A stretch of 64,000 nucleotides of DNA from Rhizobiales bacterium SYSU XM002 (GTDB taxonomy: Bacteria; Pseudomonadota; Alphaproteobacteria; Rhizobiales; Beijerinckiaceae), in assembly GCA_009846685.1 (NCBI GenBank), contig VWVY01000005.1:124001-188000 (forward strand). Direction: 5' to 3'. Position numbers and translations under genes: made by a program. The notes under the pieces are model-generated. The model ran no database searches. It was not told the origin of the DNA and saw nothing but the letters and a program-made list of their open reading frames with translations. Below are positions 34,040 through 40,721 of this stretch, in pieces. Position 1 is the stretch's first letter. Each line of letters opens with the position of its first letter.

Positions 34040-34909
34040 TCACCAGACAAGGCTGGCCATGGTCATGGTCGGCCTTGCGTTGTTGAGATCGGCAAGGCGT
34101 CCGAAGGCCTCGCGGTCGAAATCATTGCCATTGAGTTGGATCTGGTGGGCGTGGATGCCGGCCAGCGTCATCAGGGAATCGTGCCCGTTGGCGATCGCGC
34201 CAGCGACGTCGGTGCGGAAGGCGTCGCCGATACAGAGGATGCGTGACGCCTCGATCTGCCGTCCTGCAAGCCGCGCGATATGCTCGCGCGCATGGTCATA
34301 GACGAGCCGGTGCGGCTTGCCGACCCAGATGGCTTCGCCGCCCATGTGTTCGTAGAGTTCAGCGAGGGCGCCGGCACAGGGAATAAGGTCCTTGCCCCGT
34401 TCCACGACCAGATCCGGGTTGGCGCAGTAGAGCTTCAGCCCGCGTTTCACGCCCTCGGCCAGGATGGAGCGATAATCCTCGGCAGTTTCGGTTTCGTCAT
34501 CGACGAGGCCAGTGCAGAGAATGTAACGCGCGTCCGCGAGCGGAGCCGGTCGTGCCGTCAACCCGCGATAGATCGAAACATCCCGCGATGGGCCAATGTG
34601 GTGGAAGGGGGCATCGCCTTCCGCCTCGACCAGCGCGCGCGTGACACCACCGGATGAGACAATCGCGTCATAGCAGTCGTCCGGCACATCGAAGCCGCGC
34701 AACTGCTTCTCAATCGAGGCTGGCGGACGGGGCGCGTTGGTCAGAAGCACAACCGGCAGGCCCGCCTCTCGCGCCTTCCGCAGCGCTTCCGGCGCGCCGG
34801 GATTGGCTTTCAGCCCATTGTGGAGCACGCCCCAGACATCGCTGATGATGGCCGAATAACGCGGAACGACCGCACGAAAACCGGTCAGATGTTCAGGAAA
34901 GGCGCTCAC
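34040..34909 (-). CDS. HAD-superfamily hydrolase, class IIA (TIGR01459 type)
   Basis: A 289-residue haloacid-dehalogenase-fold phosphatase. Motif I is ISDVWGVLHNG (the nucleophile Asp followed by V-W rather than the usual D), motif II LLTNAPRP, and motif III/IV WVGKPHRLVYDHA and ILCIGDAFRTDVAGA. This is the pattern of the alphaproteobacterial NagD-like family TIGR01459, whose substrate is not established. It converges with the CheY-like gene and is separated from the gene upstream by a terminator. Confidence 0.88.
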   Translation of the reverse strand: MSAFPEHLTGFRAVVPRYSAIISDVWGVLHNGLKANPGAPEALRKAREAGLPVVLLTNAPRPPASIEKQLRGFDVPDDCYDAIVSSGGVTRALVEAEGDAPFHHIGPSRDVSIYRGLTARPAPLADARYILCTGLVDDETETAEDYRSILAEGVKRGLKLYCANPDLVVERGKDLIPCAGALAELYEHMGGEAIWVGKPHRLVYDHAREHIARLAGRQIEASRILCIGDAFRTDVAGAIANGHDSLMTLAGIHAHQIQLNGNDFDREAFGRLADLNNARPTMTMASLVW

Positions 34910-34991: not shown

Positions 34992-36380
34992 TCAGGCCCG
35001 GCGTGCAAGATCTCGCAAGGTGCGGCGCTCGGGACGCGGCTCCGGCGCCGGCGAGACTTCCGCCGTGCGCGGTGTATCGAGCACATCCGCCCGAACAGCT
35101 TGTGGCGGCGAGAACGCATTCCCTTGGGCAAACTCGACGTTGATATCGAGCAGGTCAGCCACGTCGCCTTCAGCGCCAACGCCTTCCACGATGAAGTTCA
35201 GCCGGCGCCGCGCAAGCAAAGCCACGAAATCGACACTCGCCACATCCATCAGCGTCTCGCTGGCCTGTGCAAGCGGCAGGAAGCGGTCAGCCGTCATCCG
35301 TAGCCAGCGGACACCCATCTGCGACAGCTTCAGCGGATCGAAATCGAGATCCTCGATGTCGCGCATCGCGAAGCTGAAGCCCATCTTGCCCAGCGTGCGC
35401 AGGGCCTCGTGCTCGAACGCGACCGCCTTCTTGAAGAAGCGTTGCGGCAGGCACAGCACGATCCGTTCGGCGGCGCGCGGCACGTCCGCGACCAAGGCGT
35501 CGAGATCGTCGAACGCGGCTTCGCTCATCAGGAAGCGCTGGGATATGTCCGCGAAAAGAACGATTTCCCGGTCACGCTGCTCGAAAACGCGCGCAAGCCG
35601 GATGGCCTGGATCATCAACTTGCGATCGAAAGCGAGCTGATGGCCGACCGCCTCGACCGCTTGACGGATATCGGTATTTGGTATCGCGAGGTCGCCGCCA
35701 TCCGGCCGGAGCGTGACGTCATAGCCCCGAACGCGCCGCTGCGGCAGGCCGACGACGCGCTGGAGATAAAGGTCGAACCGGTCGGCTGCGATGGCAGCGG
35801 CAACGAGCTGGCGAACAGCGCGCGGCGCTTCCGAACCGACGACCGAGCGCGGCGCGGCGGGAATATCGCGCAGCGCGGGCTCCTCGGCTGCCAGCGGACG
35901 CGGCATGGAGGCGGCGGGCGGCATCGCGGGCTTCGACGTCGGGGCGACCCAGCCCGGCGCGGCGCGACCGGCAGACATCGGCATCCGGCGGATATCGACA
36001 AGCTCCGCTTCGGTCTTCTCGGTCCGTTTGTCGAGTTCGGCGACTCCGTCGGCGATGTCGCGGACGAGTGCACTCAACGCAGCAAATTCGCTTGCACGGA
36101 TCGCCTGCGGATCGACGAGCGCCACGGATTCTCGCAGTTCGCGGGTGTGGCGCGCCAGAAGCGCGGCATGCTGGCGCGTGCTTTCGAGATGATTGCGCAG
36201 GACGTCGACTTCGCGGTTGGTCGCATTGTTGCGCAGGTGCAGGAACATGCCGCCGCCGGCAAAGGCGCCGGAAAGTGCGGCCACCGCAAGCCAGAGCTGA
36301 TCCATCTGCTGGGCGGCGACCGTCGCGCCCGTCGCGGCGGCGGCAAGCGAACTGACAGCGAGGAAATGTCTGAAACGCAT
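34992..36380 (-). CDS. tipF: TipF-like membrane protein with degenerate EAL domain
   Basis: A 462-residue protein with two N-terminal hydrophobic segments (FLAVSSLAAAATGATVAA; LWLAVAALSGAFAGGGMFL), a coiled coil (about 55-125, NREVDVLRNHLESTRQHAAL), a Pro/Ala-rich linker and a C-terminal EAL fold (about 190-435). The EAL signature is replaced by YDVTLR, and the DDFG and EGVE motifs by RDIEDLD and VEGVGAEG, so phosphodiesterase activity is unlikely. Caulobacter TipF, a c-di-GMP receptor that positions the flagellum, has this architecture. The start is the ATG at 36380; a TTG lies 18 bases upstream. The name is inferred from architecture. Confidence 0.7.
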   Translation of the reverse strand: MRFRHFLAVSSLAAAATGATVAAQQMDQLWLAVAALSGAFAGGGMFLHLRNNATNREVDVLRNHLESTRQHAALLARHTRELRESVALVDPQAIRASEFAALSALVRDIADGVAELDKRTEKTEAELVDIRRMPMSAGRAAPGWVAPTSKPAMPPAASMPRPLAAEEPALRDIPAAPRSVVGSEAPRAVRQLVAAAIAADRFDLYLQRVVGLPQRRVRGYDVTLRPDGGDLAIPNTDIRQAVEAVGHQLAFDRKLMIQAIRLARVFEQRDREIVLFADISQRFLMSEAAFDDLDALVADVPRAAERIVLCLPQRFFKKAVAFEHEALRTLGKMGFSFAMRDIEDLDFDPLKLSQMGVRWLRMTADRFLPLAQASETLMDVASVDFVALLARRRLNFIVEGVGAEGDVADLLDINVEFAQGNAFSPPQAVRADVLDTPRTAEVSPAPEPRPERRTLRDLARRA

Positions 36381-36627
36381 GTTTTTCGTCGGCGCCAATT
36401 TATCAGGAAGGACAGCGAATCACTTTTGTTAACCTAAATTCTCGGGCGTCGGTTGACGAGAGCCAAAGAGGGCAACGAGTTGTGGAAATCGTGTTGTTCG
36501 TGGCAGTTTCTTCCAGCAGAATTCGCATGGACGTGAACCGGCCCGGTGGGTTGCAAAACCCCTGATTGCGTACTCACGCATGGCCGATGCAGCCGTGCCG
36601 TGAAACGCCTGTAGAAAGTGGACAGCC

Positions 36628-37131
36628 ATGCCAAGGCCGATCAAGCCGAGAACCGTTGCGCCGCCTGCCTCGCGCTATGCCCACGGGGTCGTCCATTCAG
36701 CGCGGGCGCGGCGGCTCGTCATTGCCGGGCAGGTCGGCGTCACGGTCGACGGCAAGATCGCGGCAGGCTTGCAAGCCCAGTGCGAACAAGTCTGGGACAA
36801 CATTACCGCGATCCTGATCGAGGCCGGCATGTCGCTGACCGATCTTGTCCGGATCACGGCCTATACCACCGAGCCGGGCGGGGCTGCGATCTACCGTTCC
36901 GTGCGAGACAGGCGACTTGGCGGTCATCTCGTCGCCGCAACCTACATCGAGGTTGCCGGACTGGCTGACCCGCACTACCTCATCGAAATCGAGGCCGAAG
37001 CTGTTTGTGAGGAGCCAGATCTCGCCTTTCTTGACATGGATCAGGACGGGGCTGTGGCGTCTTCGGATATCAGTGGGCTCGCGAGCGCCGCACCGGCTGC
37101 ACGCTCGGGTCGCGGCAAGTCAGGAGCGTGA
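36628..37131 (+). CDS. RidA-family protein lacking the deaminase arginine
   Basis: A 167-residue YjgF/YER057c/UK114 (Rid) fold protein: VIAGQVGVTVDGKIAAG, then VWDNITAILIEAGMSLTDLVRI and EIEAEAV. RidA enzymes that hydrolyse enamine/imine intermediates need an Arg in ARSCVEV; the equivalent here reads AATYIEV, so it is not a canonical RidA. The last 40 residues are an acidic then Ala/Ser-rich tail not found in the about 130-residue family. Its TGA is followed three bases later by the ATG of an HMA protein. The 247 bases upstream, to the TipF-like gene, contain no gene that I can support. Confidence 0.85.
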   Translation: MPRPIKPRTVAPPASRYAHGVVHSARARRLVIAGQVGVTVDGKIAAGLQAQCEQVWDNITAILIEAGMSLTDLVRITAYTTEPGGAAIYRSVRDRRLGGHLVAATYIEVAGLADPHYLIEIEAEAVCEEPDLAFLDMDQDGAVASSDISGLASAAPAARSGRGKSGA

Positions 37132-37133
37132 CA

Positions 37134-37340
37134 ATGGGAATGGCAATCGAGATCAAGGTCGAGGGTATGGGCTGCCAGAAATGCGTGACGTCGGTCGAGG
37201 CCGCGTTGAAGCGCGTCGATCCGGGTGCGCGCGTTGACGTCGACCTCGCCGGCAAGCTTGTCCGTGTCGCAGACGCCACGGCCCCGCAAGCTGCGCTTGA
37301 GAGCGCGATCGAGGACGCGGGCTACGACGTGGTGAAATAA
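37134..37340 (+). CDS. Small heavy-metal-associated (CopZ-like) protein
   Basis: A 68-residue stand-alone HMA domain. The metal-binding loop GMGCQKC has Cys14 and Cys17, and the C-terminus ends AIEDAGYDVVK, typical of copper chaperones and of the N-terminal domains of copper ATPases. AGGAG lies seven bases before the ATG at 37134, inside the end of the RidA-like gene; a GTG at 37128 would sit directly on that site. No copper ATPase or CueR-type regulator is in the window, so its metal partner is unknown. Confidence 0.88.
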   Translation: MGMAIEIKVEGMGCQKCVTSVEAALKRVDPGARVDVDLAGKLVRVADATAPQAALESAIEDAGYDVVK

Positions 37341-37478: not shown

Positions 37479-38831
37479 ATGTCGAAATCCGGTGCGCGTC
37501 CCATCACGACGCAGTCGCAGCCCAATGACCTTGAGGCGTTCTGGCTGCCCTTCACCGCGAACCGCGCCTTCAAGAAGACGCCGCGCATCGTTTCGCATTC
37601 GAAGGACATGCATTATTACACGACCGACGGTCGTGCGGTCATGGACACGACCGCAGGTCTCTGGTGCTGCAACGCCGGGCATAACCGTGATCCGATCGTC
37701 GCGGCGATCCAGGCTCAGGCCGCCACGCTCGATTACGCGCCGCCGTTCCAGTTCGCGCATCCGCTCGGCTTCCAGCTCGCCTCGCGCATTGCCGATATGG
37801 CGCCCGGCGATCTCGACCACGTCTTCTTCGTTAACTCCGGCTCCGAGGCTGTCGATACCGCGCTGAAGATGGCCTTGGGCTATTGGCATGCGAAGGGCGA
37901 ATCCAATCGTTTCCGGTTCATCGGCCGCGAGCGCGGCTATCACGGCATCGGCTTTGGCGGCATTTCTGTCGGCGGCATTTCGCCGAACCGCAAGGCCTAC
38001 GCACCGGCGCTGCTGCCGGGTGTCGATCACCTGCCGCACACCTATGACCGCGAGAAACAGGCCTTCACCAAGGGCGAGCCCGAATATGGTGCACATTTCG
38101 CCGATGCGCTCGAAGGCATCGTCGCGCTGCACGACCCCTCGACCATCGCGGCCGTGATCGTCGAGCCGATGGCGGGATCGACCGGTGTTCTCGCCACCCC
38201 CAAAGGCTATCTCAAGCGCCTGCGTGACATCTGCGACAAGTACGGCATCCTGCTGATCTTCGACGAGGTCATCACCGGCTTCGGTCGCCTCGGCCATGCC
38301 TTCGCCGCCGAGCGCTATGGCGTTGTTCCGGATTTCATCACCTTCGCGAAGGGCGTGACCTCAGGCACCGCGCCGATGGGCGGCGTGATTGCGCGCAAGC
38401 ACATCCACGATGCCTTCATGAAAGGCCCGGAGCATATGGTGGAGTTCTTCCACGGCTACACCTATTCGGCCCATCCGCTCGCCTGCGCCGCCGGCGTCGC
38501 GACGCTCGATCTCTACCGCGACGAGGATCTCTTCGCCCGCGCCAAGAAGCTTGAACCCATCTGGGCCGATGCGATCATGTCGCTCAAGGGTCTGCCGAAT
38601 GTGCTCGACATCCGCACGGTGGGCCTCACGGCGGGTATCGACCTCGCCTCGATCCCGGATGCCTATGGCAAGCGCGCGTTCAACGGCATGCACAAGGCCT
38701 TCGAGGATTATGGCTTCATGGTGCGCAACACGGGCGATACGCTCGCGCTCACCCCGCCGCTGATCATCTCCGAGGCGCAGATCGACGAAACCGTCGACAA
38801 GATGGGCAAGCTCATCCGCGCGATTGCCTGA
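37479..38831 (+). CDS. Class III aminotransferase, beta-alanine--pyruvate type
   Basis: Pyridoxal-phosphate omega-aminotransferase of 450 residues. The start region FWLPFTANRAFKKTPRIV, the substrate loop SKDMHYYTTDGR, the cofactor region VNSGSEAVDTALKMA and the PLP lysine in FAKGVTSGTAPMGGV resemble omega-amino acid:pyruvate transaminase (EC 2.6.1.18). It probably moves the amino group of beta-alanine or a related omega-amine to pyruvate; the exact donor cannot be read from sequence. GGGAG stands eight bases before the ATG at 37479. It precedes the small cap-like protein and hisS. Confidence 0.88.
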   Translation: MSKSGARPITTQSQPNDLEAFWLPFTANRAFKKTPRIVSHSKDMHYYTTDGRAVMDTTAGLWCCNAGHNRDPIVAAIQAQAATLDYAPPFQFAHPLGFQLASRIADMAPGDLDHVFFVNSGSEAVDTALKMALGYWHAKGESNRFRFIGRERGYHGIGFGGISVGGISPNRKAYAPALLPGVDHLPHTYDREKQAFTKGEPEYGAHFADALEGIVALHDPSTIAAVIVEPMAGSTGVLATPKGYLKRLRDICDKYGILLIFDEVITGFGRLGHAFAAERYGVVPDFITFAKGVTSGTAPMGGVIARKHIHDAFMKGPEHMVEFFHGYTYSAHPLACAAGVATLDLYRDEDLFARAKKLEPIWADAIMSLKGLPNVLDIRTVGLTAGIDLASIPDAYGKRAFNGMHKAFEDYGFMVRNTGDTLALTPPLIISEAQIDETVDKMGKLIRAIA

Positions 38832-38916
38832 GAAAGCGCGAGGGTTTCTTTAACCCGCTGTGCTAGCTTGTGGTTGCCGGGGCACCAGCCGCTCGGCAAC
38901 CAAGGCAGGAGGCATC

Positions 38917-39147
38917 ATGGCAAAGGCGCATTTGCTGGCAGCGCTGTTCGCGCGTTTCGGCGTCTCGCTCACGCCGGAAGAGGCGCGCGCCGAGGATGGC
39001 AACCCGCCGCGCGACGCGATCACCATGCTGCTCGCCAACCGCGAGATCGCCGCGCGTTTCGATGCCGCGCATGGTCGCCCGCCCAACGATGACGACATCG
39101 AGGAACTGCTCGATATCTACCTCGTGCTCAAGTCTCGCGATACGTGA
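38917..39147 (+). CDS. 76-residue protein resembling the cap domain of phosphonoacetaldehyde hydrolase
   Basis: A short gene with an ideal AGGAGG site seven bases before its ATG. The product ([18 protein letters not shown], then [30 protein letters not shown]) lines up with the helical cap of phosphonoacetaldehyde hydrolase PhnX, where the corresponding text is a GV-x-x-T-x-EEAR stretch, an RIA-x-EW helix and a PTEADI helix. The HAD core before and after the cap is absent. The Schiff-base lysine of PhnX (about five to seven residues after EEAR) is not matched: the region reads [10 protein letters not shown]. It could be a free-standing conserved protein or a remnant. It lies 57 bases before hisS. 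The comparison is from memory of PhnX. Confidence 0.7.
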
Positions 39148-39203: not shown

Positions 39204-40721
39204 ATGACCGAGACGAAACCCGCCCGAACCGAGGCGCGCCGCCCGCGCGGCCTTCAGGACCGCAACGCCGCCGATATCGCCGCGACCGAGGCGATGATGG
39301 CAACGATCCGCGAAGTCTATCACCGCTACGGGTTCGATGCGGTGGAAACGCCCTTCCTCGAATACACGGATGCGCTCGGCAAGTTCCTGCCGGATCAGGA
39401 TCGGCCCAACGCCGGCGTGTTCTCGCTCAGGGACGACGACGAGCAGTGGATGAGCCTGCGCTACGATCTCACTGCCCCGCTCGCGCGCTATTGCGCGGAA
39501 AACTGGCAGAACCTGCCCAAGCCGTATCGGAGCTATCGCGCGGGATGGGTGTTCCGCAACGAGAAGCCGGGGCCGGGCCGCTTCCGTCAGTTCATGCAGT
39601 TCGACGCCGATACGGTGGGTTCGCCTTCCGTCGCCGCCGACGCCGAAATCTGCATGATGGCGGCGGATACGCTGGAAGCCTTGGGTATTCCGCGCGGCAG
39701 CTACGTCATCAAGGTCAACAACCGCAAGATTCTCGACGGCGTGATGGAAGCCATCGGCCTAGGCGGCGAGGAAAACGCCGTGCGTCGGCTGATCGTGCTC
39801 CGGGCGATTGATAAGCTGGATAAATTTTCGGCGGAGGAAGTTCGGAAGCTGCTTGGACCAGGCCGGCTCGACGAAAGCGGAGATTTCACAAAGGGCGCGG
39901 GACTTACGGGTGAACAGTCGGACATTGTAATGTTTACAATGGCTCGTGAGGCGCACGGCTCCGAAGATACAACTGCGGTCGAGGTTATCCCGGCATTTCA
40001 GGTTGCGGGAATCTCAACCAGCGACATGCCGCAGACATTTCATGATGGCGTGTCCGAATTGGGAGTCATACAACATCTTTGTCGAGCTGCCGGCTACGGC
40101 CCGGATCGCATCCGCATCGATCCCTCCGTCGTCCGCGGCCTCGAATATTACACCGGCCCTGTCTATGAGGCCGAGTTGCTGTTCGAGGTGAAGGACGAGG
40201 AGGGTCGCCCCGTGCGGTTCGGCTCGGTCGGCGGCGGCGGGCGCTATGATGGCCTCGTCTCGCGCTTTCTCGACGAACCCGTCCCCGCGACCGGCTTTTC
40301 GATCGGCGTTTCGCGCCTGCTGGCCGCTCTGCAGGCGCTCGGCAAGGTCTCGACCGAAGCCCCAGAAGGCCCGGTGATCGTGCTGGCGATGGATAAAACA
40401 CCCGAGGCGATGGCGAGCTATCAGAAGATCGTCGCGGACCTGAGGAATGCTGGCATCCGCGCCGAACTCTATCTTGGTTCGGCCGGCATGAAGGCGCAGA
40501 TGAAATACGCCGACCGCCGCAATTCCCGCGTCGCAATCATTCAGGGCTCCAACGAGCGCGAGAAGGGCGAGGTGCAGGTGAAGGACCTCGTCCTCGGCGC
40601 TACGCTGACCTCGATCAAGGATCGCGAGGAATACCTCAGGCAGCAGGCCGAGGCGCAGTTTGCGGTGCCGGTTTCCGGCGTCGTCGAGGCTGTGCGCAAG
40701 GTGCTCGCCAAGCATCGCTGA
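39204..40721 (+). CDS. hisS: Histidyl-tRNA synthetase
   Basis: Class II tRNA synthetase of 505 residues. Motif 2 is [20 protein letters not shown], the histidine-binding signature is [15 protein letters not shown], and motif 3 [13 protein letters not shown]. The start [19 protein letters not shown] at 39204 follows GAGAG; a longer in-frame reading from 39144 overlaps the small gene. Bases about 39810-40082 (residues about 203-293) have markedly lower G+C and different codon choice than the rest, though the frame and motifs are intact. hisZ, a diverged relative, follows after 97 bases. Confidence 0.96.

What the first reader, a model, noticed from the sequence alone, without database searches (positions are those of the whole stretch)
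38917..39147. Free-standing phosphonatase-like cap domain upstream of hisS
A 76-residue gene with an ideal AGGAGG site has the helical pattern of the PhnX cap ([28 protein letters not shown]) but no HAD core and no Schiff-base lysine. The clean start, stop and codon use argue against a decaying fragment. A lone HAD cap as a stable protein would be new to me; it might bind a small phosphonate/aldehyde or regulate an enzyme. It follows an omega-aminotransferase gene, which could supply an aldehyde, but that link is speculative.
Basis: partly seen in the sequence, partly recalled or inferred. Interest (0 to 1): 0.6.

Follow-up and report, generated by a model that had tools for sequence, protein, structure and literature searches.

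The report
Free-standing phosphonatase cap protein
A genus of alphaproteobacteria keeps just the helical lid of a phosphonate-degrading enzyme as a separate small gene, without the enzyme's catalytic body or its catalytic lysine, and holds it under selection next to hisS, so an enzyme part seems to have become a protein with a new, non-enzymatic job.

Summary
Window 38917-39147 encodes a 76-aa protein homologous to the C1 cap of phosphonoacetaldehyde hydrolase (PhnX): TIGR01422 E=5e-10, profile positions 19-85 of 251; a confident AlphaFold2 model (pLDDT 93.7) whose best PDB matches are PhnX caps (TM about 0.8, 1.1 Å). No HAD core flanks it. It is not a decaying fragment: in all 16 assessable genomes of the genus (Rhabdaerophilum and relatives, Hyphomicrobiales) it lies intact, on the same strand, between an AptA-type omega-aminotransferase and hisS, with dN/dS 0.03-0.27 in the 28 closest pairs. 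The copies form one clade. In over 1,000 genomes searched outside the genus I found no other free-standing copy; real hits are full-length PhnX. The Schiff-base lysine is replaced in 16/16 (Pro in 14), the active-site His is Ala in 16/16 and the substrate loop is lost, while scaffold residues stay and new charged residues are fixed on one helix. The aldehyde/phosphonate-binding idea is therefore not supported. Best explanation: an exapted, non-catalytic cap acting as a small protein-binding (adaptor/regulator) module; partner unknown. A new variant of a known kind; I found no published stand-alone HAD cap.

The parts
38917..39147 (+). free-standing PhnX-type C1 cap protein, 76 aa (stop included)
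   Evidence: TIGR01422 E=5e-10; AF2 pLDDT 93.7 and PDB fold match to 1rql/1fez/1swv/3iru caps; purifying selection; synteny
38907..38912 (+). AGGAGG ribosome-binding site, 4 nt before the ATG
   Evidence: direct reading of the sequence
38995..39018 (+). codons 27-34: former PhnX substrate loop; M49 to D, K53 to P, H56 to A (G50 kept here but not in most relatives)
   Evidence: ungapped alignment with PhnX; M, G, K, H are 24/24 in PhnX; K replaced in 16/16 and H to A in 16/16 caps
39040..39072 (+). codons 42-52, helix [11 protein letters not shown]: most conserved stretch, with cap-specific fixed R42, E43, F48 and near-fixed R47, D49; candidate interaction face (inferred)
   Evidence: column comparison caps against PhnX; helix 42-52 in the model
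37479..38831 (+). class III omega-aminotransferase, AptA type; conserved upstream neighbour
   Evidence: NF052567 684 bits, cut-off 500; synteny
39204..40721 (+). hisS, conserved downstream neighbour, followed by hisZ and hisG
   Evidence: TIGR00442 375 bits, cut-off 287; synteny

Best explanation
The gene encodes the excised C1 cap domain of a phosphonoacetaldehyde hydrolase, kept as an independently folding five-helix protein. It arose once, in the ancestor of this genus, at a fixed place between aptA and hisS. It lost the substrate-facing loop (including the Schiff-base lysine and the active-site histidine) and cannot do PhnX chemistry. It kept the helical scaffold and gained fixed charged residues, chiefly on helix 42-52. 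Most likely it now works without catalysis, by binding another protein (adaptor or regulator), perhaps as an oligomer. Shown here: homology, predicted fold, gene conservation, purifying selection, loss of catalytic residues, absence of a core. Inferred: protein binding as the function. Unknown: the partner. My confidence is about 0.95 in the identity part; the figure given is for the whole statement, mechanism included.
For: Profile and profile-profile homology. AF2 pLDDT 93.7, pTM 0.82, helices 4-13, 20-24, 31-40, 42-52, 58-74; the eight best PDB matches are PhnX, TMq 0.79-0.85, rmsd 1.1-1.7 A. Present, intact and syntenic in 16/16 assessable genus genomes; in the 17th both flanking genes are cut by contig ends. 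dN/dS 0.03-0.14 among close pairs and 0.11-0.27 among the more distant ones listed, with changes concentrated at codon position 3. One clade with support 1.00. Catalytic and loop residues lost, scaffold kept, new invariants. No PhnX over cut-off in the genus. Precedent: PcrP (PA2803), a PhnX-like HAD protein with a shortened cap, is non-catalytic and binds partner proteins (Acp3, PA3518); its authors suggest the cap contacts Acp3 (PMC12632274).
Against: No binding partner, expression or phenotype data. An invariant charged helix can also reflect self-association, nucleic-acid binding or ligand binding. The protein evolves faster than its neighbours (48-72% identity to the window copy, against 73-81% for HisS and 76-92% for the aminotransferase), so it is not as constrained as a housekeeping subunit. 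The AF2 alignment has only 5 sequences.
Confidence: 0.6

Rival explanations
1. A cap working in trans: it docks on a cap-less HAD core encoded elsewhere and completes its active site (split HAD enzyme).
For: In PhnX this domain closes over the core; the genomes carry other HAD proteins that match the core part of TIGR01422 weakly.
Against: No PhnX-like core over cut-off in any genus genome, only generic HAD scores of the kind also seen in the control genomes. The substrate loop that a trans cap would need is lost (K53, M49, H56); the loop conserved in all PhnX has drifted while the rest of the scaffold is conserved.
Confidence: 0.1
2. A small-molecule (phosphonate or aldehyde) binding protein, the first reader's suggestion, perhaps fed by the aminotransferase.
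For: It derives from a domain that binds phosphonoacetaldehyde; adjacent to an omega-aminotransferase in all 16 genomes (and window).
Against: The Schiff-base lysine is absent in 16/16 and H56 is Ala in 16/16. In PhnX much of the substrate site, including the phosphoryl-binding part, is on the missing core (established knowledge of PhnX). Full-length PhnX loci do not carry this aminotransferase nearby.
Confidence: 0.08
3. A remnant of an old phnX gene that happens to stay open, without function.
For: Part of a known enzyme gene; the genus lacks PhnX.
Against: dN/dS far below 1, no stops or frameshifts in 16 lineages with dS up to and beyond 1, a start codon in every copy, boundaries that match the two hinges of the cap.
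Confidence: 0.02
4. A regulator specific to the downstream histidine genes (HisS, HisZ or HisG), expressed with them. This is a special case of the best explanation, not an exclusive rival.
For: Same strand and same place upstream of hisS-hisZ-hisG in the loci long enough to show them.
Against: The cap-hisS gap varies from about 41 to 229 bp and the conserved gene order continues upstream too, so linkage may only reflect slow rearrangement; no direct evidence.
Confidence: 0.15

Closest known systems
Phosphonoacetaldehyde hydrolase PhnX (TIGR01422), C1 cap domain, e.g. B. cereus 1FEZ/1SWV, Oleispira 3IRU
   Same: Sequence homology over the whole cap (ungapped, up to about 40% identity to the nearest PhnX), same helical fold, boundaries at the cap's two hinges
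   Different: No HAD core, no nucleophile Asp, no Mg site, no Schiff-base lysine, no H56, no PMG loop; separate gene; not in a phosphonate operon
PA2803 subfamily (PcrP, PSPTO_2114) of phosphonatase-like non-catalytic HAD proteins
   Same: PhnX-related, catalytic residues lost, acts (PcrP) or is proposed to act by protein binding
   Different: Mirror image: those keep the core and have a shortened cap; here only the cap is kept
Other C1-capped HAD phosphatases (beta-phosphoglucomutase, Bacteroides thetaiotaomicron pyrophosphatase)
   Same: Related helical cap fold (TMq about 0.55)
   Different: Clearly more distant than PhnX caps; full enzymes

Membership tests
PhnX / TIGR01422 phosphonatase (equivalog) | Full-length score over the curated cut-off (220 bits) | tested here: not met
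   39.1 bits, profile 19-85 of 251 only
PhnX / TIGR01422 phosphonatase (equivalog) | HAD core with nucleophile Asp (DWAGT motif) and motifs II-IV | tested here: not met
   ORF starts after the position of motif I; flanking gaps of 85 and 56 bp hold no HAD motif
PhnX / TIGR01422 phosphonatase (equivalog) | Schiff-base lysine K53 and H56 in the cap | tested here: not met
   Pro/Glu/Ala at 53 in 16/16, Ala at 56 in 16/16; Lys and His 24/24 in PhnX
PhnX C1 cap domain (homology and fold) | Significant sequence homology to PhnX caps | tested here: met
   TIGR01422 E=5e-10; hhalign 98.7%, E=2.7e-16; shuffles at most 13.8 bits against 36.8 or more
PhnX C1 cap domain (homology and fold) | Helical cap fold | tested here: met
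   AF2 pLDDT 93.7; PDB matches 1rql, 1fez, 1swv, 3iru at TMq 0.79-0.85; predicted, not solved
PA2803 subfamily | HAD core retained with truncated cap | tested here: not met
   Core absent, cap complete (description in PMC12632274)
PA2803 subfamily (works like) | Non-catalytic protein binding | not testable with these tools
   Only the loss of catalytic residues could be tested

The most novel reading that the evidence does not exclude
A HAD cap has been cut out of its enzyme and domesticated as a stand-alone regulatory protein of the aptA-hisS-hisZ-hisG neighbourhood, binding one of those enzymes: a first case of a HAD cap living as an independent, selected protein with a specific partner.
Probability: 0.2. 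Interest if true: 0.75.

Novelty: new variant of a known kind. Interest (0 to 1): 0.55.

Why it matters
HAD caps are normally known as insertions that give the HAD core its specificity. A conserved cap without a core shows that the insert can fold and be selected on its own, which bears on how caps were gained and how enzyme parts turn into binding proteins. It is the reciprocal of PcrP (core kept, cap shortened, protein binding) and gives a small, testable system in a genus with a cultured species (Rhabdaerophilum calidifontis).

Tried and rejected
Chance or artefact ORF: rejected. Decaying fragment: rejected. Split gene with a core nearby: no core in the flanks. Other free-standing copies: none found in samples of 199 family, 398 order, 385 class and 399 phylum genomes (overlapping samples), plasmids or viral contigs. 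Three short or partial frames came up: G585 (79 aa, E 2e-4) and G302 (150 aa, E 2e-4) give no tblastn match to full PhnX, and G200 begins at base 3 of its contig, so it is cut. L077 from the genome-contig scan is a chance [11 protein letters not shown] match; its 360-aa frame looks to me like MurB. Pfam and PHROGs: no hit. A remnant phosphonate operon at this locus: the aminotransferase is AptA type and is absent from the six full-length PhnX loci examined. In one search the aminotransferase and hisS queries were out of frame by one base; corrected. Literature searches for stand-alone HAD caps found none, though the library holds open-licence papers only.

Full report
Observation. The ORF at 38917-39147 is real as described: ATG, 76 codons, TGA, with AGGAGG at 38907-38912. 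It lies 85 bp after an omega-aminotransferase (37479-38831) and 56 bp before hisS (39204-40721), all on the + strand. NCBIfam names the aminotransferase AptA (NF052567, 684 bits, cut-off 500) and the downstream genes hisS and hisG over their cut-offs; hisZ is over the cut-off of one of its models.

Homology. The single sequence matches TIGR01422 phosphonatase at E=5e-10 over profile positions 19-85 of 251 and no other NCBIfam model. Pfam gives nothing. phmmer against PDB sequences finds Oleispira PhnX-like 3iru (E=2e-4) and the B. cereus enzyme below significance. All nine members scanned hit TIGR01422. Profile-profile comparison with eleven full-length PhnX gives 98.7% probability, E=2.7e-16. 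In a control, 16 copies score 36.8-53.7 bits against an HMM of PhnX caps, the best of 2000 shuffled copies 13.8 bits, and no other open stretch of the window is significant (the columns of that HMM were chosen on the joint alignment). The alignment with PhnX is essentially ungapped; it starts just after motif I (DWAGT..DFGS) and ends at the second hinge, so the gene is the cap and nothing else.

Structure. AlphaFold2 with five natural sequences gives pLDDT 93.7, pTM 0.82 and helices 4-13, 20-24, 31-40, 42-52, 58-74. The eight best Foldseek matches in the PDB are all PhnX (1rql, 1fez, 1swv, 1rdf, 2ioh, 3iru, 2iof), TMq 0.79-0.85, rmsd 1.1-1.7 A over 64-70 columns, probability 1.00; E-values are modest (4e-3 to 0.1). 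More distant C1-capped HADs follow at TMq about 0.55.

Conservation. The gene occurs in 16 of 17 genomes of the genus, with no stop codon inside. In the 17th (G006) contigs end inside hisS and inside the aminotransferase, so the place is not assembled. In all 15 relatives with the locus, RidA, aminotransferase, cap and hisS lie in the same order and strand, and hisZ too except where the contig ends in hisS. Named contigs of the set include Rhabdaerophilum calidifontis and MAGs labelled Rhizobiales and Beijerinckiaceae (taxonomy). dN/dS is 0.03-0.14 in close pairs and 0.11-0.27 in the more distant listed pairs, and differences pile up at codon position 3 (2648, 1991, 4440 at positions 1, 2, 3 over all pairs). 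It evolves faster than its neighbours.

Distribution. With an alignment of the copies I searched 199 genomes of the family, 398 of the order, 385 of the class and 399 of the phylum (samples overlap). Outside the genus hits lie in frames of 230 aa or more, i.e. full PhnX where examined, apart from three exceptions: two that give no match to full PhnX and one cut by a contig end. Upstream of hisS in eleven other genera of the family there is no trace of the gene within the DNA held. Nothing was found in plasmids or viral contigs. A tree of the cap region puts all 16 copies in one clade (support 1.00) on a long branch among PhnX caps; the nearest PhnX is not resolved. One origin followed by vertical descent is the simplest reading.

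What was lost and kept. Columns fixed in 24 PhnX caps (A-P at the hinge; R, P, M, G, K, H of EARxPMGxxKxxH) are replaced in most or all free-standing copies: the K53 column is P in 14, E in 1, A in 1; the H56 column is A in 16. Scaffold positions (F11, G15, V16, I35, L39, A46, H52, G53, P56, D60) are retained. New residues are fixed: R13, A34, R42, E43, F48 and Y68 in 16/16, R47 and D49 in 15/16, of which R42, E43, R47, F48 and D49 lie on helix 42-52. This is the pattern of a domain that no longer closes an active site but keeps its fold and has acquired a new constrained face. That this face is a binding site is inference.

Function. No genome of the genus has a PhnX over the cut-off. Six of 17, including the copies most divergent from the window, have a PhnW over its cut-off, so phosphonate use there, if any, does not run through PhnX. 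The lysine and histidine losses exclude PhnX-type Schiff-base chemistry. The closest functional precedent is PcrP (PA2803) of Pseudomonas aeruginosa: PhnX-like, shortened cap, no phosphonatase or phosphatase activity, dimeric, binding Acp3 and PA3518 (PMC12632274). By analogy, and because only scaffold and surface are conserved, I commit to a non-catalytic binding module (about 0.6), with a trans-acting cap (0.1) and ligand binding (0.08) as weaker rivals. A histidine-gene regulator (0.15) is a special case of the binding module, not an exclusive rival. No step beyond conservation and fold prediction has been shown.

Novelty. I know of no free-standing HAD cap kept as a conserved gene, and open-licence literature searches found none. 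The domain itself is known; its life as a separate gene is new. I therefore call it a new variant of a known kind.

Noticed in passing
L104 (G028), between the aminotransferase and hisS: In this other genus of the family the aminotransferase and hisS are also neighbours, but the gap holds two minus-strand ORFs that look like a HigBA/Gp49-type toxin-antitoxin pair instead of the cap gene (by eye).
   Followed up: partly
G002, G003, G004, G006, G007, G010: These six genomes of the genus have a PhnW (2-AEP transaminase) over the curated cut-off but no PhnX; another route from phosphonoacetaldehyde may exist there.
   Followed up: no
window 37128-37340: Small HMA-domain (CopZ-like) metallochaperone ORF overlapping the end of a RidA-family gene; found in ten of the 15 relatives' loci and not detected in the other five (G002, G003, G004, G007, G010).
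   Followed up: partly
window 34040-34909 (minus) and 34995-36398 (minus): A HAD-IIA family (TIGR01459) hydrolase and a TipF-like EAL-domain protein lie upstream and belong to the same conserved block in all 15 relatives. The HAD protein belongs to another HAD subfamily and is not a PhnX core.
   Followed up: partly
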